Source: Streptosporangium sandarakinum
GTDB taxonomy: Bacteria > Actinomycetota > Actinomycetes > Streptosporangiales > Streptosporangiaceae
Assembly (NCBI RefSeq): GCF_013409935.1
Contig: NZ_JACCCO010000002.1
Span: 372,001 to 436,000 of the forward strand
Direction of reading: 5' to 3'
DNA: 64,000 nt
In this document: one piece after another, positions 25,596-47,987 of the stretch
Layout: each line of letters opens with the position of its first letter
Numbering within the stretch: position 1 is the stretch's first letter
The notes under the pieces: model-generated
Seen by the model: only the letters and a program-made list of their open reading frames with translations
What the model was told of the DNA's origin: nothing
The model's database searches: none
Program-made: the position numbers and the translations under genes

Positions 25596-26182
25596 CTGCC
25601 TCCGGCACCTTTCCGTCGACCGGCGAACGTACGAATCGTAGATCCCGTGATGGGAGAAATCAGTCTTTCCGCCGAGGCGGGATTCACCCGCCGTGGCAGT
25701 GGTGGCGGTGTTCGCCGGCCATGGGGGACTTCGACGGAGGTACCCGAGGCGCGATGTCCGGCGCGGCTCCGATGGGTCCGGCCCCTGTGATCACGGCTCC
25801 GGCGGCCCGGTACGGGGGCCGGTACGGAGGTCCGGCGCGGCACGAACGGACCGCCTCGTCGCGGGCGGCTCTCCCCGGCACGGGCGGCCCGCCACGGCAC
25901 GGGCGGCCCGCCACGGCGACCCGTCGGGCGACATATACCTTATTGGCCCCATTTACCCTAAGCATCTTAAATGCTATATACAAAATAGGCTGGAAAAATA
26001 GTTGAGAACGCCTCCGAGCGACAGATCGGCCACCATTCCGCAATACTCATCCGCGTCTATCTTCCCTGGCCACGCGGCCAGAATTCCCCTCCCGCACAGC
26101 TGAAGACATGACGCCCGGATCGCACAAGAATGTCAGAGCAATCACCTGGGGCAGGGGGTGCCCAGAAAAGAAGGAGAGACCG
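25596..26182. promoter_or_regulatory. Divergent promoter region with an AT-rich island
   Basis: There is no supported gene in these 587 bases between the kinase (minus) and the EF-hand gene (plus). From about 25930 to 26005 the sequence becomes strikingly AT-rich for this genome (for example TTAAATGCTATATACAAAAT) and contains the inverted repeat AGCAT-CTTAA-ATGCT at 25961-25975. This is the most likely promoter or regulatory zone for the EF-hand gene and possibly for the biosynthetic operon beyond it. Confidence 0.5.
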
Positions 26183-26755
26183 ATGGAACTGAACGGCAAC
26201 CAGCTCCTCAACCGCAAGATCGACATCTGCTTCGGGCACGGCGACCAGAACGGTGACGGCATCCTCGAACCGGCCGACGCCCTGGCCCTGGCCGCGCGGA
26301 TCATCGCCTACCTGGGTGAGCCCTTCAACTCCCCCAAGGCGCAGGCGCTGCTGGACGGCTTCGAGAACTTCTGGAGGCACGTCTCCGCCCGCATGGACAC
26401 CAACCAGGACGGCAAGGTCACTCCCCTGGAGTGGCGCACCGGGATGATCGGCGCGTTCGCCGGCGACTCCAAGGCGTTCGACGAGGGGTTCCGCCCTCTG
26501 GCCGAGGCCCTGTGGAGCATCTGCGACCGGGACGACGACGGAACGGTCGGCCCCAACGAGTTCGCGGCCTTCCAGCGGGCCTTCGGCACGTCGCCGGCCA
26601 ACAGCAAGATCGCCTTCGACAGGCTCGACAAGGACAAGAGCGGCACGCTCTCGGTGGAGGAGCTGCTGGCCGCGTGGCAGGAGTACTACACCAGCCCCGA
26701 CCCACAGGCCGCCGGCAACTGGCTCTTCGGTGACATCTGGGGCGACGACGTCTAG
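26183..26755 (+). CDS. Four-EF-hand calcium-binding protein (calerythrin-like)
   Basis: A protein of 190 residues starting at ATG 26183 behind AAGGAGAG. Four canonical EF-hand loops are visible: 21-32 (DQNGDGILEPAD), 72-83 (DTNQDGKVTPLE), 115-126 (DRDDDGTVGPNE) and 149-160 (DKDKSGTLSVEE). All keep the Gly at loop position 6, and three end in Glu. Length and layout match calerythrin of Saccharopolyspora, a cytosolic calcium buffer or sensor. There is no signal peptide. It lies just upstream of the PKS operon, but a strong hairpin separates them. Confidence 0.93.
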   Translation: MELNGNQLLNRKIDICFGHGDQNGDGILEPADALALAARIIAYLGEPFNSPKAQALLDGFENFWRHVSARMDTNQDGKVTPLEWRTGMIGAFAGDSKAFDEGFRPLAEALWSICDRDDDGTVGPNEFAAFQRAFGTSPANSKIAFDRLDKDKSGTLSVEELLAAWQEYYTSPDPQAAGNWLFGDIWGDDV

Positions 26756-26796: not shown

Positions 26797-26829
26797 GGTC
26801 CCCGGCGCGGCGCGCCCGCGCCGGGGACC
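26797..26829. terminator. Strong hairpin between the EF-hand gene and the PKS operon
   Basis: Arms at 26797-26810 and 26816-26829 form a perfect 14-bp GC-rich stem with a 5-base loop. It follows the EF-hand stop by about 40 bases and has no T tract. It probably ends or attenuates that transcript before the PKS gene. Confidence 0.6.
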
Positions 26830-26885: not shown

Positions 26886-29800
26886 ATGGAAAGCCGATGT
26901 GAGCCGATCGCGGTCATCGGAATGGGGTGCCGTTTCGCATCCGGCATAGACACCCCCGACTCGCTGTGGCGTTTTCTCATCGAACGCGGTGACGCATCGG
27001 GAACGGCACCGGAAGGTCGCTGGTCCCCTTATCACCGCATAAGTCCGGAAAACTCCGCCGTACTGCGGGCGACCACTGCCCGCGGCTCCTTCATTCCCGA
27101 CATCGCGGGATTCGACGCGGATTTCTTTGGGATATCCCCACGCGAGGCCCGGCTGATGGACCCGCAGCAGCGGATGACACTTGAGGTCGCCTGGGAGGCC
27201 CTGGAACACGCGGGCATCCCGCCGCACTCCCTCACCGGCTCCGACACGGGCGTCTTCACCGGCGTCAGCGCCGACGACTACGGCCGGCGGCTGCTTTCCG
27301 ACCTGCCCCGGATCGAGGCGTGGACCGGCATCGGAGCCGCCCCGTGCGGGGTGGCCAACCGCGTCTCCCATGCCCTCGACCTGCGCGGCCCCAGCGTGGC
27401 CGTGGACACCGCCTGCTCGGCCTCGCTGGTGGCGATCCACCAGGCGTGCCAGAGCCTGCGGCTCGGCGAGATCCCGCTGGCGCTGGCCGGTGGCGTGATG
27501 CTGATGGCCGGCCCCGAGCTGAGCGTGGTGCTCGACGCCGCCGGCGCGATCTCCCCGGACGGGCGGTCGCGGGCCTTCGACGCCGCGGCGACGGGTTACG
27601 GGCGCGGCGAGGGTTGCGGCGTCGTCGTCCTCAAGCTCCTGCGCGACGCCGTCGCCGACCGCGACCGGGTGCTCGCGCTGATCACCGGGAGCGCGGTTCT
27701 GCAGGACGGCAGGACCCCGGGCATCATGGCCCCCAGCCGCGAGGCCCAGGAGCACCTGCTGCGCCGGGCGTACCGGGCGGCGGGCGTCGACCCGGCAGAC
27801 GTCGGCTACGTCGAGGCCCACGGCACCGGGACCCGCGTGGGCGATCCGGTGGAGGCCGGCGCCCTGGCGGCGGTGCTGGGCGCCGGACGCCCCGCCGGCC
27901 GCCCCTGCCTCATCGGCTCGCTCAAGCCCAACATCGGCCATCTGGAGGCGGCATCGGGCGTCGCGGGCCTGATCAAGGCCGTGCTGTGCCTGGGACACGG
28001 GCTCATCCCGCCGACGCCGACCACCGCCGGGCCCACCCCGGCGATCCCCTGGGAGAGCTCCGGCCTGCGGCTGGTCACCGAGACGACCGGGTGGCCGGGC
28101 ACCGGGCGCCCCCGGCGGGCGGGGGTCTCGGGCTTCGGGTACGGCGGCACGATCGCCCACCTCGTCCTCCAGGAGGCCCCGCCCGCCCCCGCCCCGGCCC
28201 CGGCGGACGATGCGGACGACGTGGACGACGTGGACGACGTGGACGACGCGGCGGTCCGGCCGTACCCGCTGTCCGGCGCCACCGACGAGGCCCTGCGGGC
28301 CAACGCCGCCCGGCTGGCCGACCGGCTGTCGGGGCGCGAGGACCCGCCGCTCGCCGCGGTGGTCTCCACCCTCGCCCGCCGCCGTACCCACCTGGCCCGC
28401 CGCGCCGTCGTCGTCGCGGCCGGACGGGCCGAGCTGGTCGAGCGGCTGCGCTCCCTGGCGGCGGGCGACCCGGCCGCCGTGACCGGCCACGCACCTCCGG
28501 AACCCGTACGGCCCGCCCCCGCGACCGGCCATGCCGCACCGGAGTCCGTACGGCCCGGTCCGCACGCGGACGCCGGGCCGGTACGGCGCGACCCGGTGTG
28601 GGTGTTCTCCGGGCACGGGGCGCAGTGGGCGGGCATGGGCGCGGACCTGCTCGCCGACGAGCCGGCGTTCGCCGCCACGCTGGACCGCCTGGAGCCGGTG
28701 TACCGCGAGGAACTCGGCCTCTCCCCCGCCGACGCGTTGCGCGCCGCCGACCTGGGCGGGACGGACCGGGTCCAGGCGCTGACCTACGCGCTGCAGACCG
28801 GGCTGGCCGCCGTCTGGCGGTCGTACGGCGTGCGGCCCGGCGCCGTCATCGGGCACTCCGTCGGCGAGATCGCGGCCGCGGTGGCCGCCGGGGTCCTGAC
28901 CGAGTCCGACGGCGCGCGCCTGGCCTGCCGCCGCTCCCGGCTGTTGCGCCGGGTCGCGGGGGCCGGGGCGATGGTGATGGTCGGCCTGTCCCCCGAGGAG
29001 ACGGCCGCCCTGCTCGCCGGGGACGGAGCCGGCGACGAAGCCAGGGACGGGGACGGGGACGGGGACGGAGACGGAGACGGAGACGGAGACAGGGCCGGGG
29101 ACGGGGAGCTGTGCGCGGCGGTGTGGGCCTCGCCGTACTCCACCGTCGTGGCCGGTGACCGGGAGGCGGTGGAGCGGGCGGTCCGCCGCTGGCGCGCCCG
29201 GGGGATCGCCGTCCGCGAGGTCGCCTCCGACGTGGCCTTCCACAGCCGCCACATGGACCCCCTGCGCGCCGACCTCGCCGCCGCGGTCAAGGACCTCCCG
29301 GCGGGCCCGGCCCGGGTCCCCCTCTACACGACCGCCCTGGCCGATCCGCGGGACCCGGCCGAGCGCGACGCGGCGTACTGGGCGCGTAACCTCCGCGAAC
29401 CCGTCCGCTTCGCCGCGGCGGTGGGCGCCGCCGCGGAGGACGGCCACCGGGCCTTTCTGGAGGTCTCGGCGCACCCGGTCGTGAGCCACTCGATCGGGGA
29501 GGTCCTCGACGCCGCCGGGGTGACGGGCGCCGTCGTCACGCACAGCCTGCGGCGCGACCGGCCCGGACGGCGCGCGCTCCTCGGCGGCCTGGCCGTCCTG
29601 CACGGCGGTGGCGTGCCCGTCGACTGGCGGGCCCTCTGCCCCGGCGACGACCTGGTGGACCTGCCGAGATACGCCTGGCGGCACCGGACGCACTGGGTGG
29701 GCGACCCGCCCGCGGCGGCCGGTGGCCCCGGCCATGACCCGGACCGTCACACGCTGCTGGGCGGCCGGGAGACGGTGCACGGCACCTCCCCGGCGTACCT

Positions 29801-32800
29801 GTGGCGCACCCGGCTCCGGCACGGCAACCGCCCCTACCCCGGGGAGCACCCCGTGCGGGGGACCGAGGTGGTGCCGGCGGCCGTGCTGTTGAACACGCTG
29901 TTCACCGCGGCCGGAGAGGTCTTCGGGGGGACGCCGGCGCTGGCCGGGGTGTCGCTGCGGGTGCCCCTGTCCCCCGCCGTTCCCCGGGAGGTCCAGGTGG
30001 TCTGCCAGGACAGGACGCTGCGGCTGTCCTCCCGGCTGCTCCGCGACCCCGCCGCGTCGCCCCCCGGCACGGACGGGCTCCGTCCCGGTACGAACGGGTT
30101 CCCGCCTGGCGTGGGCGGTTCCCGCTTCGGCGCGGACGGGCCGGGCGGACGAGGGGAGGCGGCCGACGAGTGGCTCACCCACACGACGGCGGTCGTCGTC
30201 CCCCCGGGCGACGAGATCCCCGAGCCATCGTCCCCACCCGGCCGCCGGGAGGCGGGCCCCGGAGACGGCGGGCGTCCCGGGCATCCGCGCGTCGCGGCCT
30301 CCGGCGGTCTTACCGATGTCGCCGCCCGCGAGCGATCGGCGCCGGCCGCCGCTCCCGCGCCGGAAGGGCCGGCCGAGACCGGGGAGCCGCTCGACCCGGG
30401 TTTCGTGGTCGACCGGCTCGCCTCGGTCGGGGTGGCGTCGATGGGCCTCCCCTGGCGGATCGAGGAGTTGCGCCGGACCGGCGGCACGCTCACCGCGACG
30501 GTCACCGTCGCTCCCGAGGAGCCGCGGCGGACCGGTGACGCGCTCACCACGACGCTCGCCACCGCTCCTGAGGAGCCGCGGCGGACCGGTGACGCGCTCA
30601 CCGCGGCGGTCGCCGCCCCTCCCGGAGCGACCCCGTACTCCCCCACCTGGGCCGGTGTCCTGGACGCCGCCTTCTCCGTCGCCTCGGTGGCCCTTCCCGG
30701 TCCGGCGCGCCTGCGGATGCCGGCCCACGTGGGCCACGCGGTCCTGACCGGTGAGCCGCCGTCCCGCGCGGTGATCGAGGTACGGCCGGCCGGCGCGGAT
30801 CTCGCGCCCGGTCACGGCGTCGACGCCGCGCCCGCCGCCGATCCCGGCGCCGCGGCCGTCATCGGCGCGGTCACCAGTGCCGTCGTCGACGTCGGGATCA
30901 TCGACGAGCGGGGCGTCCCCGTCGCCCGGCTGCTCGGGCTGCGGTTCGGCGAGCCGGACGCCGGCCCGTACCCCGGTCCCCACGGCGACGCGGAGGACGC
31001 GGGCGGCGCGGGCGACCCGGCGGGCCTCGTCCACGAGGTGGCCTGGCTTCCCCTGGAGGTCACCGACCGGGGACTGCCGCGCACCGTGCTCCTGGCCGGC
31101 GCCGATCCCGCCCTCCGCGAGGCGCTGGACGCCTGCCTGTCCGGCGCCGGGTCGTCCCTGGAGGTCGCCGCCGATCCGGACGACCTCGTACGGCGGGCCG
31201 GGCGGCTCTCCGCCGCCGACGCGGTGGTCCTCGCGCCGTCCCTGTCACCGTCCGCGTCGCCGTACGGCCTCGATCCGGCCGCGTGGTCGTACGGTTCCGG
31301 TCCGGTCGCGTCGCCGTACGGTCCCGGCCGGTCCGCGTCGTGCGGTCTCGATCCGGCCGAGGCGGCGGCGCGCCACGCGCTGCTCCTCACCGGGACGGCG
31401 CGGCTGCTGGCCGCGACGGTGCCCGTCGGGGGCCCGCGCCTGTGGTGCGTCACCCGCGGCGCGCGCGAGGCGCGGGACGAGGCGGCGCTGGCGCAGACGT
31501 CCCTGTGGGGCCTGGGCAGAGTGATCGCGGGCGAGCACCCCGACCTGTGGGGCGGCCTCGCCGACCTGCCCGCGGAGCCCGGAAGGAACGACGTCGCGAC
31601 CCTCGCCCGGCTGCTGGGCGGCCGGTGGGACGAGGACGTCATCGGCGTCGACCGCGGTACGGCCACCACCACGCGGCTCGTCCCCGCCGCCCCGGCCGGC
31701 GCGGCCTCCGGCGTCCGGTGCCGGGCTGACGGCACCTACGTCGTCACCGGCGGGACGGGGGCGCTCGGGCTGCGGGTGGCCCGGCGGCTGGCCGAGCGGG
31801 GCGCCCGGCGGCTGGTGCTCGTCGGCCGCGCCCCCCTGCCGCCGCGCGGGCGGTGGGACGGCGACGGCCACCCCGCCGTCGCGGTGATCCGCTCGCTGGA
31901 GGCGACGGGGGTGACGATCCGGACGATCGCCGCCGACGTCGCCGACCACGACTGGATGGCCGACCTCCTCGCGCCCGACGCGCTCGGCATGCCCGCCGTA
32001 CGGGGGGTCGTGCACGCCGCCGGGGTCGTCGACGACCGGCTGCTGCGCGACCTCGACGGCCCGGCGATCCGGGCGGCCATGCGGCCGAAGGTCGCCGGGG
32101 CGCTGACCCTGCACGACCTCTACCCGCCCGGCAGCCTGGACTTCCTGGTGCTGTTCTCCTCCGCCGGACAGCTGCTGCGGCTGCCGGGGCAGGGCGCGTA
32201 CGCGGCGGCGAACGCCTTCCTCGACGGCCTCGCCCGGCACCGGCGGTGCCGGGGCGCCCGCGACACCGTCTCCGTGGCGTGGACGAGCTGGCACGGGCTC
32301 GGCATGTCCGTGTCGTCCGCGGTCACCGACGCCGAGCTGCGCGTCCGGGGGACCGCGGGCATCACGGCCGGGGAGGCGCTGCGGGCGTGGGACCACGCCG
32401 GCCCGCGCGCGGCGGGCAACCTGGCGGTGCTGCGCGTCCTGCCCGGCGGGGCACGCGCCGGCCGTCCCCGCGTCCTGGCGGCGATCCCCGACGCCACCGC
32501 GTCCGACGCGACCGGCCCCGCGGGCGCGGCGGCGAACGGTTCCGGAGCCGGAACCGGAGCCGAGCTCTCCTGGAGGGACCTCGATGGTCCCGAACTGCGC
32601 GCGTTCCTGCTGGCGGAGACGGACCGGGCCGCCGCCGAGACCCTGCGCGCCGAGCCCGGCGCGCTGGACCCGCACCGGCCGCTCGCCGAGCTGGGCGTCG
32701 ACTCCCTCCTGGCGACGCTGCTGCGGTCCAGGCTCCAGGAGCGGCTGGGGCTCACCCTGCCCGCCACGCTGCTGTGGAACCGGCCCGCGATCTCCGACAT

Positions 32801-32861
32801 CGCCGACTACCTGGCCGAACTGCGCGCGGCCGACTCTTCCCTCCCTAGGAGCGCAACATGA
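26886..32861 (+). CDS. Iterative type I polyketide synthase, 6-methylsalicylate-synthase-like (KS-AT-TH/DH-KR-ACP)
   Basis: A protein of 1991 residues, longer than typical 6-MSA synthases (about 1700-1800). The start is ATG 26886 (MESRCEPIAVIGMG) after GGAG. Domains in order are: KS with C177 in VDTACSASL and the histidines in EAHGTG and KPNIGHLE; AT with S658 in GHSVG and VAFHS, suggesting malonyl-CoA; a thioester-hydrolase/dehydratase-type domain with H988 in HPVRGTEVVPAA; KR with TGGTGALG and Y1772; and ACP with S1940 in LGVDSLL. There is no ER or terminal thioesterase, matching the iterative synthases NcsB, ChlB1 and AziB. Extra length comes from repeat-rich linkers. It should make a small aromatic acid. 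Confidence 0.93.
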   Translation: MESRCEPIAVIGMGCRFASGIDTPDSLWRFLIERGDASGTAPEGRWSPYHRISPENSAVLRATTARGSFIPDIAGFDADFFGISPREARLMDPQQRMTLEVAWEALEHAGIPPHSLTGSDTGVFTGVSADDYGRRLLSDLPRIEAWTGIGAAPCGVANRVSHALDLRGPSVAVDTACSASLVAIHQACQSLRLGEIPLALAGGVMLMAGPELSVVLDAAGAISPDGRSRAFDAAATGYGRGEGCGVVVLKLLRDAVADRDRVLALITGSAVLQDGRTPGIMAPSREAQEHLLRRAYRAAGVDPADVGYVEAHGTGTRVGDPVEAGALAAVLGAGRPAGRPCLIGSLKPNIGHLEAASGVAGLIKAVLCLGHGLIPPTPTTAGPTPAIPWESSGLRLVTETTGWPGTGRPRRAGVSGFGYGGTIAHLVLQEAPPAPAPAPADDADDVDDVDDVDDAAVRPYPLSGATDEALRANAARLADRLSGREDPPLAAVVSTLARRRTHLARRAVVVAAGRAELVERLRSLAAGDPAAVTGHAPPEPVRPAPATGHAAPESVRPGPHADAGPVRRDPVWVFSGHGAQWAGMGADLLADEPAFAATLDRLEPVYREELGLSPADALRAADLGGTDRVQALTYALQTGLAAVWRSYGVRPGAVIGHSVGEIAAAVAAGVLTESDGARLACRRSRLLRRVAGAGAMVMVGLSPEETAALLAGDGAGDEARDGDGDGDGDGDGDGDRAGDGELCAAVWASPYSTVVAGDREAVERAVRRWRARGIAVREVASDVAFHSRHMDPLRADLAAAVKDLPAGPARVPLYTTALADPRDPAERDAAYWARNLREPVRFAAAVGAAAEDGHRAFLEVSAHPVVSHSIGEVLDAAGVTGAVVTHSLRRDRPGRRALLGGLAVLHGGGVPVDWRALCPGDDLVDLPRYAWRHRTHWVGDPPAAAGGPGHDPDRHTLLGGRETVHGTSPAYLWRTRLRHGNRPYPGEHPVRGTEVVPAAVLLNTLFTAAGEVFGGTPALAGVSLRVPLSPAVPREVQVVCQDRTLRLSSRLLRDPAASPPGTDGLRPGTNGFPPGVGGSRFGADGPGGRGEAADEWLTHTTAVVVPPGDEIPEPSSPPGRREAGPGDGGRPGHPRVAASGGLTDVAARERSAPAAAPAPEGPAETGEPLDPGFVVDRLASVGVASMGLPWRIEELRRTGGTLTATVTVAPEEPRRTGDALTTTLATAPEEPRRTGDALTAAVAAPPGATPYSPTWAGVLDAAFSVASVALPGPARLRMPAHVGHAVLTGEPPSRAVIEVRPAGADLAPGHGVDAAPAADPGAAAVIGAVTSAVVDVGIIDERGVPVARLLGLRFGEPDAGPYPGPHGDAEDAGGAGDPAGLVHEVAWLPLEVTDRGLPRTVLLAGADPALREALDACLSGAGSSLEVAADPDDLVRRAGRLSAADAVVLAPSLSPSASPYGLDPAAWSYGSGPVASPYGPGRSASCGLDPAEAAARHALLLTGTARLLAATVPVGGPRLWCVTRGAREARDEAALAQTSLWGLGRVIAGEHPDLWGGLADLPAEPGRNDVATLARLLGGRWDEDVIGVDRGTATTTRLVPAAPAGAASGVRCRADGTYVVTGGTGALGLRVARRLAERGARRLVLVGRAPLPPRGRWDGDGHPAVAVIRSLEATGVTIRTIAADVADHDWMADLLAPDALGMPAVRGVVHAAGVVDDRLLRDLDGPAIRAAMRPKVAGALTLHDLYPPGSLDFLVLFSSAGQLLRLPGQGAYAAANAFLDGLARHRRCRGARDTVSVAWTSWHGLGMSVSSAVTDAELRVRGTAGITAGEALRAWDHAGPRAAGNLAVLRVLPGGARAGRPRVLAAIPDATASDATGPAGAAANGSGAGTGAELSWRDLDGPELRAFLLAETDRAAAETLRAEPGALDPHRPLAELGVDSLLATLLRSRLQERLGLTLPATLLWNRPAISDIADYLAELRAADSSLPRSAT
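28215..28250 (+). repeat. 9-bp tandem repeat in the PKS KS-AT linker
   Basis: GACGACGTG is repeated three times plus a variant copy, encoding Asp-Asp-Val repeats in the linker after the KS domain. It is in frame and lies in a flexible spacer. Confidence 0.85.
29045..29091 (+). repeat. 6-bp tandem repeat (Asp-Gly) inside the PKS AT domain
   Basis: About eight in-frame copies of GACGGG/GACGGA encode a run of Asp-Gly dipeptides between GLSPEETAALLAG and LCAAVWASPYSTVVAGD of the acyltransferase domain. The insert sits at a surface loop position, so the fold can probably tolerate it. Confidence 0.85.
30516..30605 (+). repeat. 54-bp tandem repeat in the PKS TH/DH domain
   Basis: An 18-residue unit (EEPRRTGDALTTTLATAP) is present about one and a half times at a period of 54 bases, with a third, more diverged copy just upstream. 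It inserts into the C-terminal half of the thioester-hydrolase/dehydratase-type domain without breaking the frame. Confidence 0.75.
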
Positions 32862-34252
32862 TCACCGGACCCGATGTCCGCCTCTTCGCGGACGACCCGA
32901 TGGAGTTCTTCGGCGGCTCGCGCCACGCCATGCACACCATGCCCCCGCACGACCTCGCCGCCCTCCAGCTCGCGGCGCTGCGGCTGCGCTTCGCCGAGCT
33001 GCGCGACCGGCTGCCGGTGCTCCGCGCGATGGCCGACGAGCAGGGCATCGACGGGATCACCCGGCTCGACGACGCGGCCCCGCTGCTGTTCCCGCACACG
33101 ATCTACAAGTCGTATCCGGCGTCGCTGCTGCTGGAGGGCAGGTTCGACCGGCTGACGACCTGGCTGTCGCGGCTCGTCACCGTCGACCTGTCCGGCCTCG
33201 ACGTCTCCGGGTGCGACTCCATCGACGGGTGGCTCGACCTGCTGGACGGCCGGACCGAGCTGCGCCTGGCCCATTCCTCCGGCACCTCGGGCACGATGTC
33301 GTTCATCCCGCACACGCGCGAGCAGTACACCAGGCTCTACGACATCGTGCGACTGGAGGTCCTCCCCGGCCCGGAGCGGAGCGGGGAGCGGCTCGACGTC
33401 GTCTGGCCCGGGTTCCGCACCGGCCGCAGCGGCATCGACCGGCACGCCGCCGCCATGGCGGAGCGGATCGCGGGCTCGCCGGACCGGTTCCACAGCGCCC
33501 ATCCGGGGCCGCTCAGCGCCGACGTGATGTTCCTCGCCGCCCGGCTGCGGGCCGCGGCCGCCCGGGGCGAGGCCGGCCGCATGGAGATCCCGGCGACGCT
33601 CCGGGAGCGCCGCGCGGAGTTCGAGGAGGCGCAGCGGGCCGCCGCGGCCGGGATGGGCCGGTACGTCGAGGAGCTGGCCGAGCGCCTCGCCGGGCGGCGG
33701 GTCGTCTCGCTCAGCCTCTGGGCCACCTACCACGAGATGGCCACGGCCGGTCTCGCCCGCGGCATCGAGGGCGTCTTCGCCCCGGACTCGGTGATCTTCC
33801 CGGGCGGCGGCGCGAAGGGCACGGCCCTGCCCGCCGACTGGGCGAGGGGCGTCGAGCGGTTCGCCGGGGTGCCGGCCCTGCGGTACTGCTACGCGATGGC
33901 GGAGGTCATCGCGCTCAACCTGATCTGCCCGCGCGGCCGCTACCACATCGAGCCGTGGGTGGTCCTGTACGTCCTGGACCCCGACACCGGGGCCCCGCTG
34001 CCCCGCGAGGGGACGCGGACCGGCCGGGCCGCGTTCTTCGACCTGCTGGCCGACGTCTGCTGGGGCGGTTTCGTCTCCGGCGACGAGGTCACCGTCGACT
34101 GGTCGCCGTGCGGCTGCGGGCGCACCACCCCCCACCTGGCCACGGACATCGGCCGCTACAGCGACCGGCGGGGAGACGACAAGATCACCTGTGCGGCGAC
34201 CCCGGAGGCGCTCAACGACGCGCTGGACTTCCTCAACGGGGCGCTGCTCTGA
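32858..34252 (+). CDS. Acyl-activating (adenylate-forming) enzyme, PaaK/LuxE-like
   Basis: A protein of 464 residues. The Ser/Gly/Thr-rich AMP-binding loop SSGTSGTMSF is at about 139-148. The later FPGGGAKG and the Cys-rich CGCGRTTPHL block resemble phenylacetate-CoA ligase and acyl-protein synthetase (LuxE) relatives. Such enzymes adenylate a carboxylic acid and pass the acyl group to CoA or to a protein cysteine. The ATG lies inside the PKS stop codon (ATGA) with AGGAG before it, and the next gene encodes a LuxC-like reductase. I infer that it activates the PKS product for reduction. Substrate not proven. Confidence 0.82.
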   Translation: MITGPDVRLFADDPMEFFGGSRHAMHTMPPHDLAALQLAALRLRFAELRDRLPVLRAMADEQGIDGITRLDDAAPLLFPHTIYKSYPASLLLEGRFDRLTTWLSRLVTVDLSGLDVSGCDSIDGWLDLLDGRTELRLAHSSGTSGTMSFIPHTREQYTRLYDIVRLEVLPGPERSGERLDVVWPGFRTGRSGIDRHAAAMAERIAGSPDRFHSAHPGPLSADVMFLAARLRAAAARGEAGRMEIPATLRERRAEFEEAQRAAAAGMGRYVEELAERLAGRRVVSLSLWATYHEMATAGLARGIEGVFAPDSVIFPGGGAKGTALPADWARGVERFAGVPALRYCYAMAEVIALNLICPRGRYHIEPWVVLYVLDPDTGAPLPREGTRTGRAAFFDLLADVCWGGFVSGDEVTVDWSPCGCGRTTPHLATDIGRYSDRRGDDKITCAATPEALNDALDFLNGALL

Positions 34253-35730
34253 TGGGCGCGCCGACGATCCCGGCGTTCGTCCGGGGCGAGACGGTCTGGG
34301 ACGACCCCGTCGCCTTCGGCGGGACCGGCGAGGCGTGCGCGTTCCGCGCGCCCGACCCGGTGGCCCTGCTGGACCGGCTGCCGCTGACCGACCCGCTGCG
34401 CATGCGCGACCTGGCCGAGGTCACCACCTCCGACGTCGTGGACTACCTCGCCGAGCTGGGGCCGCGGCTCCGCCTCTCGGTGAACGGCTTCCTGCGGGAG
34501 GCGCTGGAGCACTCGACGGCGTGGTCCGACATGACGCCGCCTGTCCTGGCGGCCTGCTACGAGCAGCTCCCGTCGCTGTTCACGCCCGAGGCCGTCCGCG
34601 CGGTCGCCGAGGGGACGGTGGGCTCCCGGTTCCTGGACGGCTGGCAGGAGGTGGCCTCGCCCGGCGGCGGGACCGCGGCGGTGCGGGCCGTCGGGGCCCG
34701 CGCCGTGCACATCATCGCGGGCAACAACCCGATCATCGCGGCCATCACGATCATCCGGAACGCCCTCGTGCGCGGCGACGCCGTGATCAAGACCCCGGCC
34801 AACGATCCGCTCACCGCGGTGGCCGTCGCCCGGACGATGGCGGAGACGGCGCCCGGCCATCCGCTCACCCGGCACCTGGCCGTCGCCTACTGGAAGGGCG
34901 GCGGCGCCGCCGTCGAGGACCGCCTCTACCAGCCCGGCAACATCGACAAGATCGTGGCGTGGGGCGGGCTCGCGTCCGTCCGGCACGTCACCCGCTACAT
35001 CCAGCCGGGCGTGGAGCTGGTCACCCTCGACCCGAAGCTCAGCGCCACGATCGTCGGCGCGGAGGCGTTCGCCGACGAGGCGAGCATGGCCGAGACGGCC
35101 CGGCTGGCCGCCGTGGACGTCGGCGCGCTGAACCAGCTCGGCTGCTTCAACGCCCGCGTCGTCCACGTCGTCACCGGCCTCGACGCCGCGGGCCTGGAGC
35201 GCGCCGAGCGCTGGGGGGAGCTGCTCCACCGGGAGATCCTGCGGCTGCCCGCCGCAGTGAGCACCCCGGCCCGGTGGTTCGACCCGGAGCTGCGGGCGTC
35301 GTTGCGGGCGTTGCGGACCAGCCCCGACTGGTACCGCGTCATCGGCGGCCACGACGACGAGGGGGCGGTGGTCGTCTCCCGGGTGGCCGAGCCGGTCGAC
35401 TTCCACACCGCCCTGTCGGGCCGGGTGGCCAACGTCGTGCCGGTGGCCTCGCCGCGGGACGCGCTGAAGGCCATGAACGCCTACACCCAGACGGTCGGCG
35501 TCTACCCCGAGTCGCTCAAGCGGCGGCTGCGCGACCTCCTCCCCCTGTACGGCGTGCAGCGCCTGGTCTCGCTCGGCTACGCCACCCGCTTCCGGCCGGA
35601 CGTGCCCCAGGACGCCATGGAGCCGGTCCGCCGCATGGTCAAGTGGATCGTCGACGAGAGCTGCTCCCCCGGCGACGTCCACCCCCTCGGTCACCTGGAC
35701 CGGCGGGCGGAACCCTGGGGGCGGTCATGA
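34252..35730 (+). CDS. LuxC-like acyl-CoA/acyl-protein reductase
   Basis: A protein of 492 residues with the aldehyde-dehydrogenase-like LuxC architecture. Visible motifs are HIIAGNNPIIAAITIIRNAL with VIKTPANDPLTA (nucleotide-binding region), ELVTLDPKLSATIVG, and catalytic C298 in ALNQLGCFNARVV, near LuxC Cys286. LuxC reduces an activated acyl group to an aldehyde with NADPH. The ATG shares one base with the upstream stop (TGATG). No luxA, luxB or luxD genes are present, so light emission is not implied. Pairing with a PKS suggests an aromatic aldehyde as intermediate. Confidence 0.88.
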   Translation: MGAPTIPAFVRGETVWDDPVAFGGTGEACAFRAPDPVALLDRLPLTDPLRMRDLAEVTTSDVVDYLAELGPRLRLSVNGFLREALEHSTAWSDMTPPVLAACYEQLPSLFTPEAVRAVAEGTVGSRFLDGWQEVASPGGGTAAVRAVGARAVHIIAGNNPIIAAITIIRNALVRGDAVIKTPANDPLTAVAVARTMAETAPGHPLTRHLAVAYWKGGGAAVEDRLYQPGNIDKIVAWGGLASVRHVTRYIQPGVELVTLDPKLSATIVGAEAFADEASMAETARLAAVDVGALNQLGCFNARVVHVVTGLDAAGLERAERWGELLHREILRLPAAVSTPARWFDPELRASLRALRTSPDWYRVIGGHDDEGAVVVSRVAEPVDFHTALSGRVANVVPVASPRDALKAMNAYTQTVGVYPESLKRRLRDLLPLYGVQRLVSLGYATRFRPDVPQDAMEPVRRMVKWIVDESCSPGDVHPLGHLDRRAEPWGRS

Positions 35731-37076
35731 CGGGCACGCGCGGCGTCCAGGCGACGGTGAACGGGCCGGGGAACGGGCCGGGGAGCGGCGGCCCGACGGC
35801 CGGGGACGCGGCGGACGGGGCTCCGGGGAGCGGCGGGCCGGTGGACGACGACCGGCGGGCCGCCGAACGGAGGGCCGCCGAACGGCTGACCGCCGACTTC
35901 GACCACCACGACCCCGAGCTCACGCCCGACCTGGCGTGCCTGGTCCACCGGGAGATCCGGGAGACGACGCCGGTCGCGTACTCCCGCGCCCACGGCGGAA
36001 TGTGGATCCTGTCCCGCTATGACGACGTCCGCGCCGCGCTCCGGGACCACGATACGTTCAGCTCGGCCTCCGGGGTCTTCTTCCCGCGCGCCGAGGGCAC
36101 CCCGCCGTTCGCGCCCCTGGAGTACGACCCGCCGGAGCACACCCGCTTCCGCGCCCTGATGAAGCCTCCGCTGCTGCTGCCCGAGGCCCGGCGGCTGACG
36201 CCGGAGATCGCCGTCCTGGTCGCCCACGCCGTACGGCCCGTCGTCGCACGGGGCGGTGGGGACCTGGTGCGCGAGCTCGCCGTACCTCTGCCGCTGGCGG
36301 TGGTGTCGCTCGCCGTCGGCTTCTCGGCGGACGCGCGCGACCGCATCCGCGACCTGACCAGCAACACCTGGGCGCGGATGCCCAGGGACGGCGACGCGGG
36401 CGGCTTCTGGCCGGCGTTCGCCGAGCTGTTCCAGTCGGAGATCCGCCGGGCCCGCGCCCGGTCCGGCGGCGACCACCTGTCCGTCCTGGTCCGCGAGGAG
36501 ATCGACGGCCGCCCGGTCACCGACGCCGAGCTGCACGTCATGCTGGTCGCCTACGCCATCGCCGGCCACGAGACCTCCATGAACACCCTGGCGCACCTGC
36601 TGCGGCACCTGGCGGCGCACCCCGGCCTGCAGGACCGGCTGCGCGCCGAGCCGCACCTGATGCCCGCGGCGGTGGAGGAGGCGCTGCGGCTGTGGACGCC
36701 GGTCGACCACGGCACCCGGCTGACCACGAGGGACGTCGAGGTCGGCGGGGTCGTCATCCCGCGCGGGTCGCGGGTCGTCCTGCTGACCGGCGCGGCCAAC
36801 CGCGACCCGCGGGCCTTCCCCGAGCCGGAGGAGTTCCGGCTGGACCGGACGCCGAACCGGCACCTGACCTTCGGCCACGGCATCCATTTCTGCCTCGGCG
36901 CCCACCTGGCCCGCGTGGAGTTCCTCGCCGTCCTGCGCGAGCTCGCCCGCCACCCGGACTACGAGCTCGCGGGCGAGACCCGCCGCTACTACGAGAACGG
37001 CCGGCACATCTGCCTGGACCGGCTGCCGGTACGGTTCCGCCCGGCCAGCCCGGTCGGCACGGCCCGGACGGCCTGA
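35727..37076 (+). CDS. Cytochrome P450, last gene of the PKS operon
   Basis: A protein of 449 residues starting at ATG 35727 (MTGTRGVQA), overlapping the reductase stop (ATGA). It has the I-helix oxygen-activation motif IAGHETS, the ExxR pair in EEALRLW and the heme loop FGHGIHFCLGAH with ligand C389. Residues 1-45 are a Gly/Pro-rich extension before the usual P450 start, so translation could begin later. No ferredoxin gene is adjacent. It probably oxidises the product of the three upstream enzymes. Confidence 0.92.
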   Translation: MTGTRGVQATVNGPGNGPGSGGPTAGDAADGAPGSGGPVDDDRRAAERRAAERLTADFDHHDPELTPDLACLVHREIRETTPVAYSRAHGGMWILSRYDDVRAALRDHDTFSSASGVFFPRAEGTPPFAPLEYDPPEHTRFRALMKPPLLLPEARRLTPEIAVLVAHAVRPVVARGGGDLVRELAVPLPLAVVSLAVGFSADARDRIRDLTSNTWARMPRDGDAGGFWPAFAELFQSEIRRARARSGGDHLSVLVREEIDGRPVTDAELHVMLVAYAIAGHETSMNTLAHLLRHLAAHPGLQDRLRAEPHLMPAAVEEALRLWTPVDHGTRLTTRDVEVGGVVIPRGSRVVLLTGAANRDPRAFPEPEEFRLDRTPNRHLTFGHGIHFCLGAHLARVEFLAVLRELARHPDYELAGETRRYYENGRHICLDRLPVRFRPASPVGTARTA

Positions 37077-40001: not shown

Positions 40002-41171
40002 ATGGAGAAGAGGATGCCGTTCGAGCGGGAGAACCTGCTCGACCTGCCCGACACGTACCGGGAACTGCGCGCCACCGAGCCGGTGGCCCGGATCCGCACC
40101 TACGTGGGCGACCCCGCGTGGCTGGTCTCCGGCTACGAGGAGGCCCGGCAGGCCCTCTCCGACCCGCGCCTGGGCCGCTCGTCCCCCGATCCGGAGCGCT
40201 CCTCCCGGATCTCGGACTCGGTGCTGTTCGGCGGCCCGCGCGACGAGATCGAGACCGAGAAGTCCCGGCACCAGCGGATGCGCCGGATGCTCACCCCGGC
40301 CTTCTCCGCCCGCCGGATGGGCGCCATGCGGCCGCGCGTCCAGGAGCTCGTCGACGGCCTCCTCGACCGCCTGGCCGAGTTGCCGAAGCCGGTCGACCTG
40401 CACGAGGGGTTCTCCGTCCCGCTGCCCATCCTGGTGATCTGCGAGCTGCTCGGCGTGCCGTACGAGGACCGCGACCACTTCAGGAAGCTGGCCGACGAGA
40501 TGGGGATGCTGGGCGACCCGGTGCGGGCCCAGGCGGCGATGGACGCCATGACCGAATACACCGGGGGGATCCTCGCCGAGAAGCGGGCGCGCCCGGCCGA
40601 GGACGTCTTCTCCGACCTGGCCACCATGGACGCCTCCGACGAGGAGGCCGCCAAGCTCGCGGGAGGGTTGCTGTTCGCGGGCCACGAGACCACCGTCAGC
40701 CGGATCGACTACGGCGTGCTCCTGCTGCTGGCCAACCCCGAGCAGCGGGACGCCCTGGTCGCCGACCCGTCGCTGGCGGACGCGGCGGTGGAGGAGATCC
40801 TGCGTCTGGCCGCGCCGAGCGACCACGGCCTGCCCCGCTACGCCCAGGAGCCGGTCACCGTCGGCGGCGTGGCCGTCGAACCCGGTGAGGCGGTGGTCGT
40901 CTCCATCCAGTCGGCCAACCGCGACGAGCGGGCCTTCCCGGACCCCGACCGGTTCGACCTGCGCCGCCCCACCGGCGAGCCGCACGTCGGGTTCGGCTAC
41001 GGCCCGCACTTCTGCATCGGGGCGAGCCTGGCCCGGGTGGAGCTGCGGACGGTGTTCGGCACGCTGTTCCGGCGCTTCCCCACCCTGGCCCTGGCGGTGC
41101 CCATGGAGGAGATCCGGGCTCGTCCGAACGCCCTGACCGGCGGCCTCACCGGCCTGCCCGTGACCTGGTAG
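40002..41171 (+). CDS. Cytochrome P450, CYP105/CYP107-like
   Basis: A soluble P450 of 389 residues. It shows the C-helix heme contact in RHQRMRRMLTPAFS, the I-helix LLFAGHETTVSR, ExxR in EEILRLA and heme loop FGYGPHFCIGAS with C338. The layout is that of actinobacterial secondary-metabolism P450s. I start it at ATG 40002, with AGGGGGG about 10 bases upstream; ATG 40014 is possible. It is monocistronic, without ferredoxin, and substrate unknown. Confidence 0.93.
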   Translation: MEKRMPFERENLLDLPDTYRELRATEPVARIRTYVGDPAWLVSGYEEARQALSDPRLGRSSPDPERSSRISDSVLFGGPRDEIETEKSRHQRMRRMLTPAFSARRMGAMRPRVQELVDGLLDRLAELPKPVDLHEGFSVPLPILVICELLGVPYEDRDHFRKLADEMGMLGDPVRAQAAMDAMTEYTGGILAEKRARPAEDVFSDLATMDASDEEAAKLAGGLLFAGHETTVSRIDYGVLLLLANPEQRDALVADPSLADAAVEEILRLAAPSDHGLPRYAQEPVTVGGVAVEPGEAVVVSIQSANRDERAFPDPDRFDLRRPTGEPHVGFGYGPHFCIGASLARVELRTVFGTLFRRFPTLALAVPMEEIRARPNALTGGLTGLPVTW

Positions 41172-45250: not shown

Positions 45251-46910
<1,660 letters not shown>

Positions 46911-46915
<5 letters not shown>

Positions 46916-47078: not shown

Positions 47079-47987
47079 ATGTCATCCGACCAGACCTTCG
47101 CCGTGACGGAGATCCGCGTGTCCGGCCCGGACGCCGGGCCGTACGGCATCACCGCCGGACCCGACGGCGCGCTGTGGTTCACCCTGGTCCATCAGGGCCG
47201 GATCGGCCGGATCACTCCCGGCGGGGAGCTCACCTCCCATCCGCTCGACCCGGCGTCGGGCGGGCCGACGACCATCACCGCCGGGCCCGACGGCGCGCTG
47301 TGGTTCACCGAGTACCGCGGCCACCGGATCGGGCGCCTCACCACCGGCGGGGAGGCCACCGCGTTCCCGCTGCCCACCCCGGAGGCGGGGCCGTTCGGGA
47401 TCGCGGCGGGGCCCGACGGCGCGCTGTGGTTCACCGAGACCGGCGCCGACCGGATCGGCCGCGTCACGGTGGACGGGGAGATCACCGAGTTCCCGCTGCC
47501 GGAACGCGGGACCTTCCCGTCGGCCATCGCCGCCGGACCCGACGACGCCCTGTGGTTCACGATGAACCAGGCGAACGCGATCGGCAGGATCGGCGTGGAC
47601 GGCGACGTCACCGTCCACCGGCTGCCGTCCGAGGGCGCGGCCCCGGTGGGCATCACCGCCGGGGCGGACGGCGCGATGTGGTTCGTGGAGATCGGAGCGG
47701 GTCAGATCGGGCGGATCACCCCGGACGGGCGAATCGAGGAGTTCCCGCTCCCCGACCGCGCCGCCCGCCCGCACGCCATCGTCGCCGGCCCGGACGGGAA
47801 CTGCTGGTTCACCGAGTGGGGCGCCAACCGCGTCGGCCGGATCACCCCCGGCGGGCGGATCGACGGGTACGACCTGCCGACCCCGTCGTCGGAGCCGCAC
47901 GGCATCGCGGCCGGGCCGGACGGCGCGCTGTGGGTGGCGCTGGAGATCGGCGCGCTGGCCCGCCTCGCTCCGGAGTCCGCGGGCTGA
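47079..47987 (+). CDS. vgb: Virginiamycin B lyase-like protein (streptogramin B lyase)
   Basis: A cytoplasmic seven-bladed beta-propeller of 302 residues, the standard Vgb length. Each blade carries a repeat of the form GIAAGPDGALWFTE followed by RIGRIT and a Gly/Glu-rich turn. Vgb linearises streptogramin B antibiotics by an elimination at the ester bond. The last blade keeps HGIAAGPDG, matching the region of the catalytic histidine. It lies 163 bases after the ABC-F gene on the same strand, so the two may be induced together. Confidence 0.9.
   Translation: MSSDQTFAVTEIRVSGPDAGPYGITAGPDGALWFTLVHQGRIGRITPGGELTSHPLDPASGGPTTITAGPDGALWFTEYRGHRIGRLTTGGEATAFPLPTPEAGPFGIAAGPDGALWFTETGADRIGRVTVDGEITEFPLPERGTFPSAIAAGPDDALWFTMNQANAIGRIGVDGDVTVHRLPSEGAAPVGITAGADGAMWFVEIGAGQIGRITPDGRIEEFPLPDRAARPHAIVAGPDGNCWFTEWGANRVGRITPGGRIDGYDLPTPSSEPHGIAAGPDGALWVALEIGALARLAPESAG

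What the first reader, a model, noticed from the sequence alone, without database searches (positions are those of the whole stretch)
26886..37076. Iterative aromatic PKS coupled to a LuxE/LuxC-type acid reductase pair and a P450
Four genes overlap by 1-4 bases, so they form one translationally coupled unit: a 6-MSA-synthase-like PKS, a PaaK/LuxE-like acyl-activating enzyme, a LuxC-like reductase with C298 in place, and a P450. Iterative PKSs of this layout make 6-methylsalicylic or naphthoic-type acids. LuxE/LuxC pairs normally reduce fatty acids to aldehydes. Together they imply reduction of a PKS-made aromatic acid to an aldehyde, then P450 oxidation. I do not know a described cluster with this set.
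Basis: partly seen in the sequence, partly recalled or inferred. Interest (0 to 1): 0.85.

Follow-up and report, generated by a model that had tools for sequence, protein, structure and literature searches.

The report
Aromatic polyketide acid-to-aldehyde gene cassette
A rare soil-bacterium gene set joins a small aromatic-acid factory to a two-protein acid-to-aldehyde reducer (the kind used by glowing bacteria) and an oxidising enzyme; in two related bacteria the reducer and the oxidiser are one fused protein, so the set probably makes a still unknown aromatic compound by way of an aldehyde.

Summary
Observation confirmed: four same-strand genes overlap by 4, 1 and 4 bases: an iterative PKS (KS-AT-PT/TH-KR-ACP), an acyl-activating protein, LuxC with C298, and a P450. 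The PT/TH domain is of the aromatic-cyclase type (AviM PT E 3.9e-64; best modular DH 1.1e-8). The activating protein matches no Pfam or NCBIfam model, but its family profile finds LuxE (E 1.4e-6); a LuxE-like cysteine near the C-terminus is present in 42 of 42 relatives, and the gene abuts LuxC in 43 of 46 loci. The PKS-linked form recurs at 13 loci in 12 genomes of four actinobacterial families. New here: LuxC and P450 are fused in two Streptomyces; an EF-hand gene accompanies five copies and a DpsC/ChlB3-like KSIII gene seven, never both; the set is rare (1 of 392 Streptomyces genomes). Most likely a PKS-made aromatic acid is adenylated, passed to LuxC, reduced to an aldehyde, and oxidised by the P450. 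Aryl-acid reduction by a two-protein activator/reductase pair has a precedent (GriC/GriD). Product, substrate and order of steps are untested. New variant of a known kind.

The parts
26108..26755 (+). EF-hand protein, 215 aa, four canonical 12-residue EF loops
   Evidence: Pfam EF-hand; four loops in 5 of 5 copies; nearest solved chains: juvenile hormone diol kinase, a putative calcium-binding protein, calerythrin; kept with the PKS in 5 of 13 cassettes
26797..26829 (+). GC-rich hairpin (14-bp stem) between EF-hand stop and PKS start
   Evidence: Hairpins with unlike sequence at the same place in all five EF copies; z -2.6 in the window, -5.2, -3.7 and -1.4 in three others
26886..32861 (+). 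Iterative type I PKS, KS-AT-PT/TH-KR-ACP, 1991 aa
   Evidence: Pfam; motifs DTACS 27405, GHSVG 28851, KR GGTGALG 31749 and YAAAN 32199, ACP GVDSL 32694
29733..30947 (+). PT/TH (aromatic cyclase-type hot-dog) domain; His at 29847, Asp in LDAAFS at 30660
   Evidence: Profile of six copies: AviM PT 7vwk E 3.9e-64, next a modular DH E 1.1e-8; dyad conserved in 9 of 9 complete PT domains, L008 included
32858..34252 (+). LuxE/PaaK-type acyl-activating protein, 464 aa; candidate acyl-carrying Cys445 (codon 34190-34192)
   Evidence: Profile hit to LuxE 7xc6_E, E 1.4e-6; C445 in 42 of 42; next to LuxC in 43 of 46 loci
34252..35730 (+). LuxC-type acyl reductase, 492 aa; Cys298 (codon 35143-35145)
   Evidence: PF05893 E 4.8e-35; 7xc6_A E 9.2e-29; Cys in 41 of 41
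35727..37076 (+). Cytochrome P450, 449 aa, with heme-binding FGxGxHxCxG and I-helix AGHETS
   Evidence: Pfam; fused to LuxC in one ORF in L003 and L004; present in 13 of 13 cassettes

Best explanation
A small biosynthetic cassette. (1) The PKS condenses acetyl/malonyl units, reduces one keto group or more with its KR, and its PT/TH domain closes the chain into an aromatic acid of the 6-methylsalicylate type (inferred from domain order and PT class). (2) The acid is released, possibly by the PT/TH domain (inferred). (3) The LuxE-like protein adenylates it with ATP and takes it onto Cys445 as a thioester (inferred from the LuxE relation, the invariant Cys and the invariant pairing with LuxC). 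(4) The acyl group passes to Cys298 of LuxC and is reduced with NADPH to an aryl aldehyde (inferred from the Lux mechanism). (5) The P450, physically joined to LuxC in two Streptomyces, oxidises the aldehyde (order and position unknown). The EF-hand protein is an added calcium-binding part of one sub-type; a KSIII-like acyltransferase takes its place in the other. Shown by sequence: the genes, their domains and key residues, the conservation of the set, the fusion. All chemistry is inferred.
For: Domains and overlaps. PT domain: AviM PT E 3.9e-64 against 1.1e-8 for the best modular DH, His and Asp kept; H949A in AviM abolishes orsellinic acid (PMC9135731, abstract and passages). KS-AT tree of 12 rows puts the cassette PKSs beside L008, a KR-less KS-AT-PT-ACP enzyme, away from the modular ones. 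KR motifs intact. Activating protein: LuxE profile hit, intermediate sequence that is Pfam LuxE, C445 42 of 42 and LuxC C298 41 of 41, pairing 43 of 46. Mechanism of LuxE Cys364 and LuxC Cys286: passages of PMC8301110. Cassette at 13 loci, 12 genomes; PKS-linked LuxE-like and LuxC each one clade in trees that held 10 of the 13. LuxC-P450 fusions. KSIII of seven copies resembles DpsC, CerJ and ChlB3; ChlB3 moves 6-methylsalicylate (abstract in listing). Two-protein aryl-acid reductase precedent GriC/GriD.
Against: No product, activity or metabolite is known. The activating protein fails every family model on its own; its structure model is weak (pLDDT 54) and its Foldseek hits to PaaK1, AjiA1 and a PaaK-family AMP ligase have TM of only 0.21-0.24. 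The same LuxE-like/LuxC family occurs without a PKS in most loci examined (33 of 46), in settings that suggest other acids, so substrate cannot be read from the family. The P450 I-helix acid differs (AGHETS in the window, GGHQTT in the fusions), so its reaction may vary. The best PDB match of the whole PKS is mycocerosic acid synthase, by the KS-AT part. The Pfam DH-N match is weak.
Confidence: 0.6

Rival explanations
1. The P450 acts on the acid or on the PKS-bound chain, and reduction comes last, so the end product is an oxidised aryl aldehyde or alcohol.
For: In L030 and L118 the P450 is a separate, divergent gene upstream of the PKS, so it need not follow LuxC; gene order says nothing of reaction order.
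Against: The LuxC-P450 fusion in L003 and L004 and the LuxC-P450 overlap in the window suggest that the two work in sequence, though in either order.
Confidence: 0.25
2. LuxC takes the acyl group straight from the PKS carrier protein (reductive off-loading), and the LuxE-like protein serves as an acyl shuttle or salvage enzyme for hydrolysed acid.
For: PKS and reductase genes are translationally coupled; no separate thioesterase or KSIII is in the EF-hand sub-type.
Against: The LuxE-like/LuxC pair is kept in many loci without any PKS, so the pair works on acids as such.
Confidence: 0.12
3. The LuxE-like/LuxC pair acts on a fatty or other acid and lies next to the PKS for joint use in a larger molecule.
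For: Relatives sit beside acyl-CoA, SDR and steroid-type genes in Mycobacterium, Sphingobium and others.
Against: The PKS-linked pairs form one clade and always come with the same PKS and P450 (13 of 13); no other acid-making gene is in the set.
Confidence: 0.12

Closest known systems
Bacterial aromatic iterative type I PKSs (AviM, ChlB1, CalO5 type)
   Same: Single KS-AT-PT/TH-(KR)-ACP protein; PT domain and His/Asp as in AviM; a KSIII of the ChlB3/DpsC kind in seven copies
   Different: Partner genes reduce the acid instead of attaching it to a larger molecule; the window copy has no KSIII. ChlB1 and CalO5 sequences were not held, so not compared
Lux fatty acid reductase (LuxC, LuxE)
   Same: LuxC family with its acyl Cys; LuxE relation by profile, Cys near the C-terminus
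   Different: Activating protein too distant for PF04443; no luxA, luxB or luxD in the set; beside an aromatic PKS
GriC/GriD, 3-amino-4-hydroxybenzoate reductase of grixazone biosynthesis
   Same: Two-protein ATP-dependent reduction of an aryl acid to an aldehyde (passages of PMC10179220)
   Different: The aryl acid there is not a polyketide; no P450 or fusion was mentioned in the passages seen; sequence relation to the window pair not tested
Single-chain carboxylic acid reductases (CAR)
   Same: ATP and NADPH reduction of acids to aldehydes (recalled)
   Different: No adenylation-carrier-reductase chain here; LuxC is of the ALDH kind

Membership tests
Bacterial aromatic iterative type I PKS | One protein with KS, AT, PT/TH, (KR), ACP | tested here: met
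   Pfam and motifs
Bacterial aromatic iterative type I PKS | PT-type rather than modular DH domain, His/Asp dyad | tested here: met
   AviM PT E 3.9e-64 vs 1.1e-8; dyad in 9 of 9
Bacterial aromatic iterative type I PKS | Makes 6-methylsalicylic, orsellinic or naphthoic acid | not testable with these tools
   No biochemical data; characterised KR-bearing members were not held for a tree
LuxE acyl-protein synthetase | Reaches the Pfam LuxE (PF04443) cut-off | tested here: not met
   No match; 2 of 12 relatives match weakly, best E 0.0017
LuxE acyl-protein synthetase | Homology to LuxE by profile | tested here: met
   7xc6_E E 1.4e-6, best stretch on its own 1.5e-4; intermediate in G213
LuxE acyl-protein synthetase | Acyl-accepting Cys near the C-terminus | tested here: met
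   C445 in 42 of 42, compared with Cys364 of LuxE; direct alignment to LuxE Cys364 was not shown, since the profile alignment stops before it
LuxC acyl reductase | PF05893 over cut-off and acyl Cys | tested here: met
   121.7 bits against 21; Cys298 aligned to the Cys in YDQQACFSTQ; below the NCBIfam equivalog cut-off for true LuxC, 118 of 750 bits
lux bioluminescence operon | luxAB luciferase and luxD in the set | tested here: not met
   No such gene among the five cassette genes
GriC/GriD aryl-acid reductase | Sequence relation and activity on aryl acids | not tested
   GriC/GriD sequences were not held; only passages read

The most novel reading that the evidence does not exclude
The fused LuxC-P450 is a single channelled enzyme: LuxC hands a fresh aryl aldehyde to the P450, which removes the formyl carbon or oxidises next to it, so that the cassette turns a PKS-made aromatic acid into a decarboxylated or ring-oxidised phenol or quinone by reduction followed by oxidation. 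That would be an off-loading and tailoring logic not known for aromatic iterative PKSs, with the EF-hand protein as a calcium-set carrier or switch.
Probability: 0.15. Interest if true: 0.8.

Novelty: new variant of a known kind. Interest (0 to 1): 0.6.

Why it matters
It links two well-studied systems not seen together in the papers that I could search: aromatic iterative PKSs and the LuxE/LuxC acid reductase. It gives a name-free family of 'hypothetical proteins' (the LuxE-like partner, absent from Pfam and NCBIfam) a testable role, and the natural LuxC-P450 fusion offers a compact enzyme for making and further oxidising aryl aldehydes. Five genes in culturable strains (Streptosporangium pseudovulgare, Streptomyces ochraceiscleroticus, Streptomyces niger) make the product directly testable.

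Tried and rejected
Rejected: a modular PKS or fatty-acid type PKS (PT profile; KS-AT tree); a chance neighbourhood (13 loci with PKS, LuxE-like, LuxC and P450); a bioluminescence operon (no luxAB/luxD). Solanimycin was read (passages) because its P450 SolI matched: no LuxC/LuxE pair there. Led nowhere: single-sequence structure model of the activating protein (pLDDT 36); the six-sequence model (pLDDT 54, pTM 0.55) is too weak for more than a hint. Papers on Streptomyces ochraceiscleroticus: none on such a cluster in the listing. Rows dropped: L039 from the LuxE-like tree (kept in the LuxC tree); L038 from alignments, trees and recounts as a duplicate of L002; the KS-AT tree held 8 of the 13 cassette PKSs (L030 has an interrupted reading frame, L070 is cut by its contig end, L111, L112 and L118 came later), and L091 was left out of it by the length rule. 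Three of the 46 loci do not have the adjacent pair in the count: L014 (a second copy does abut LuxC), L039 (1.8 kb apart), L078 (no LuxC in about 20 kb).
Full report
What is there. The window lies in a Streptosporangium-like genome (G000 contig 2, 372001-436000); S. pseudovulgare carries the same block (92-99% identity for its five proteins). On the + strand stand an EF-hand gene (26108-26755), then after 130 bases the PKS (26886-32861), the activating protein (32858-34252), LuxC (34252-35730) and a P450 (35727-37076), the last four overlapping by 4, 1 and 4 bases. Beyond the P450, on the other strand, are a glycerol-kinase-type FGGY kinase and an aquaporin-type MIP gene; before the EF-hand gene is a protein kinase gene on the other strand. 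In Streptomyces ochraceiscleroticus and S. niger the same five genes stand among quite different neighbours, which fixes the borders of the set.

The PKS. Pfam gives KS, AT, a weak DH-N, KR and ACP. A profile of the central domain from six copies matches the AviM product-template domain (7vwk; PMC9135731 deposits it under that code) at E 3.9e-64, and the next solved chain, a modular DH, at 1.1e-8. With the single window sequence the same PT was the only DH-fold chain among seven hits at E up to 1. The catalytic His and Asp of AviM are kept in nine of nine complete PT domains, L008 included. AviM makes orsellinic acid and has no KR in its KS-AT-PT-ACP layout; Nonomuraea gerenzanensis L008 is such a KR-less enzyme and is 47% identical over KS-AT-PT, but has no LuxC or LuxE-like gene in its 27.9 kb. 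The window enzyme keeps a KR with its cofactor and catalytic motifs, which is the 6-methylsalicylate layout (recalled). The whole-protein PDB search is led by mycocerosic acid synthase, through KS-AT; this does not speak for an aromatic product, but no aromatic bacterial KS-AT was among the 60 rows shown of 138.

The activating protein. Alone it matches nothing in Pfam (E 10), NCBIfam (E 0.1) or the PDB (two chance hits at E 5 and 8). The profile of twelve relatives finds LuxE of entry 7xc6 at E 1.4e-6 (best stretch on its own 1.5e-4) and then phenylacetate-CoA ligases at 0.005 and above. A relative in G213, found with the first profile at E 3.6e-16, is itself Pfam LuxE over the cut-off. The same 7xc6 entry holds the LuxC that is the only PDB hit of our LuxC. 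C445, in DDKI[TS]CAA near the C-terminus, is C in 42 of 42 relatives, with K84, G145, G318, K320, E349, D409 and R433 also in 42 of 42. In LuxE the acyl carrier is Cys364, and in LuxC Cys286 (passages of PMC8301110); C298 of our LuxC is C in 41 of 41. The profile alignment to LuxE ends before the Cys, so the match of C445 to Cys364 rests on place and conservation, not on an alignment. The AlphaFold models are poor; Foldseek with the better one ranks PaaK1, AjiA1 and a PaaK-family AMP ligase first (E 2.4e-5 to 1.6e-4) but with TM near 0.2. I take it as a remote LuxE/PaaK relative, not as a member of PF04443.

A pair found far beyond this cluster. In 43 of 46 loci examined the gene lies on the same strand within 300 bases of LuxC. 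Relatives occur in 10 of 297 genomes of the window's family (E 1e-5), 27 of 394 of the class (E 1e-20) and 17 plasmid records, among them Sphingobium, Mycobacterium avium, Caballeronia and Paraburkholderia, annotated as hypothetical protein where annotated. 33 of the 46 loci have no such PKS, so the pair is a general acid reductase and the substrate must be read from the partners.

The PKS-linked form. In trees with 10 of the 13 (two of them identical), the PKS-linked LuxC and LuxE-like proteins are each one clade (support 96/92 and 96/86), with the M. avium plasmid pair as sister. With a profile of eight PKS-linked proteins at E 1e-100: 4 of 345 genomes of the window's order, 1 of 392 of the genus of S. 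ochraceiscleroticus, 6 of 249 in the Pseudonocardia family, of which 5 have the PKS, and 2 of 35 in the family of G533, of which one has the PKS. So it is rare and patchy, which fits transfer between lineages (inference).

Two sub-types. Five copies have the EF-hand gene directly upstream; seven have a KSIII-like gene next to LuxC; none has both, and the cut contig of G533 shows neither. The KSIII is closest to the daunorubicin DpsC-type acyltransferase (E 7.6e-55), then CerJ and ChlB3 (E 6.7e-27); ChlB3 moves 6-methylsalicylate in chlorothricin biosynthesis (abstract in listing). This is independent support for an aromatic acyl product in that sub-type. Four of those seven also have a cupin match and further genes (AMP-binding, acyltransferase, MFS).

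Fusion. In L003 (884 aa) and L004 (882 aa) LuxC and P450 are one open frame, with Pfam LuxC and P450 matches in both. The two species are close kin, so this is one event seen in two assemblies. In L030 and L118 the P450 is divergent and upstream. The I-helix reads AGHETS in the window and GGHQTT in the fusions.

The EF-hand protein has four canonical loops in five of five copies; its nearest solved relatives are juvenile hormone diol kinase, a putative calcium-binding protein and calerythrin, with calexcitin and the photoprotein obelin further off. Its NCBIfam match (XopAW, 49.8 bits) is far below the cut-off of 120. Between it and the PKS each of the five copies has a GC-rich hairpin of unlike sequence; z-scores are -2.6, -5.2, -3.7 and -1.4 for four of them, so the last is not significant. 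It may be a terminator without a U-run (inference).

Mechanism. Best reading: PKS, aromatic acid, adenylation and loading on Cys445, transfer to Cys298, NADPH reduction to aldehyde, P450 oxidation. Shown: genes, residues, conservation, fusion. Inferred: every chemical step. The literature precedent is GriC/GriD (AMP-binding GriC and GriD reduce 3-amino-4-hydroxybenzoate to the aldehyde; passages of PMC10179220).

Novelty. Ten paper searches, of which some were aimed at such a cluster, listed no paper that by title or abstract start describes it. The library lacks most subscription journals and MIBiG was not at hand, so a published case may exist.

Noticed in passing
window 45542-46915 (+) and 47079-47987 (+): An ATP-binding ABC protein with two ABC_tran stretches stands next to a virginiamycin B lyase family protein (E 8e-150): looks like a streptogramin self-protection or resistance pair.
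   Followed up: no
window 40002-41171 (+): A second P450, closest to the pentalenolactone synthase model (390 bits, cut-off 700), not related closely to the cassette P450.
   Followed up: no
L030 about 4569: The PKS of G201 is interrupted: its KS start and the rest lie in different frames. Assembly error or decay; left as it is.
   Followed up: no
L080 8725-6244 (-): A P450 follows directly on LuxC in a locus without the PKS (27% identity to the window P450): LuxC-P450 neighbourhood may be wider than this cassette.
   Followed up: no
L013, L014, L012, L011, L010: Unnamed LuxE-like/LuxC pairs on plasmids of Novosphingobium, Paraburkholderia (two LuxE-like copies), Sphingobium, Caballeronia and Mycobacterium avium, annotated hypothetical protein plus acyl-CoA reductase.
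   Followed up: partly
window 26797-26829 and L003, L004, L072, L002 intergenic EF-PKS: Hairpins of unlike sequence at the same place between EF-hand gene and PKS.
   Followed up: partly
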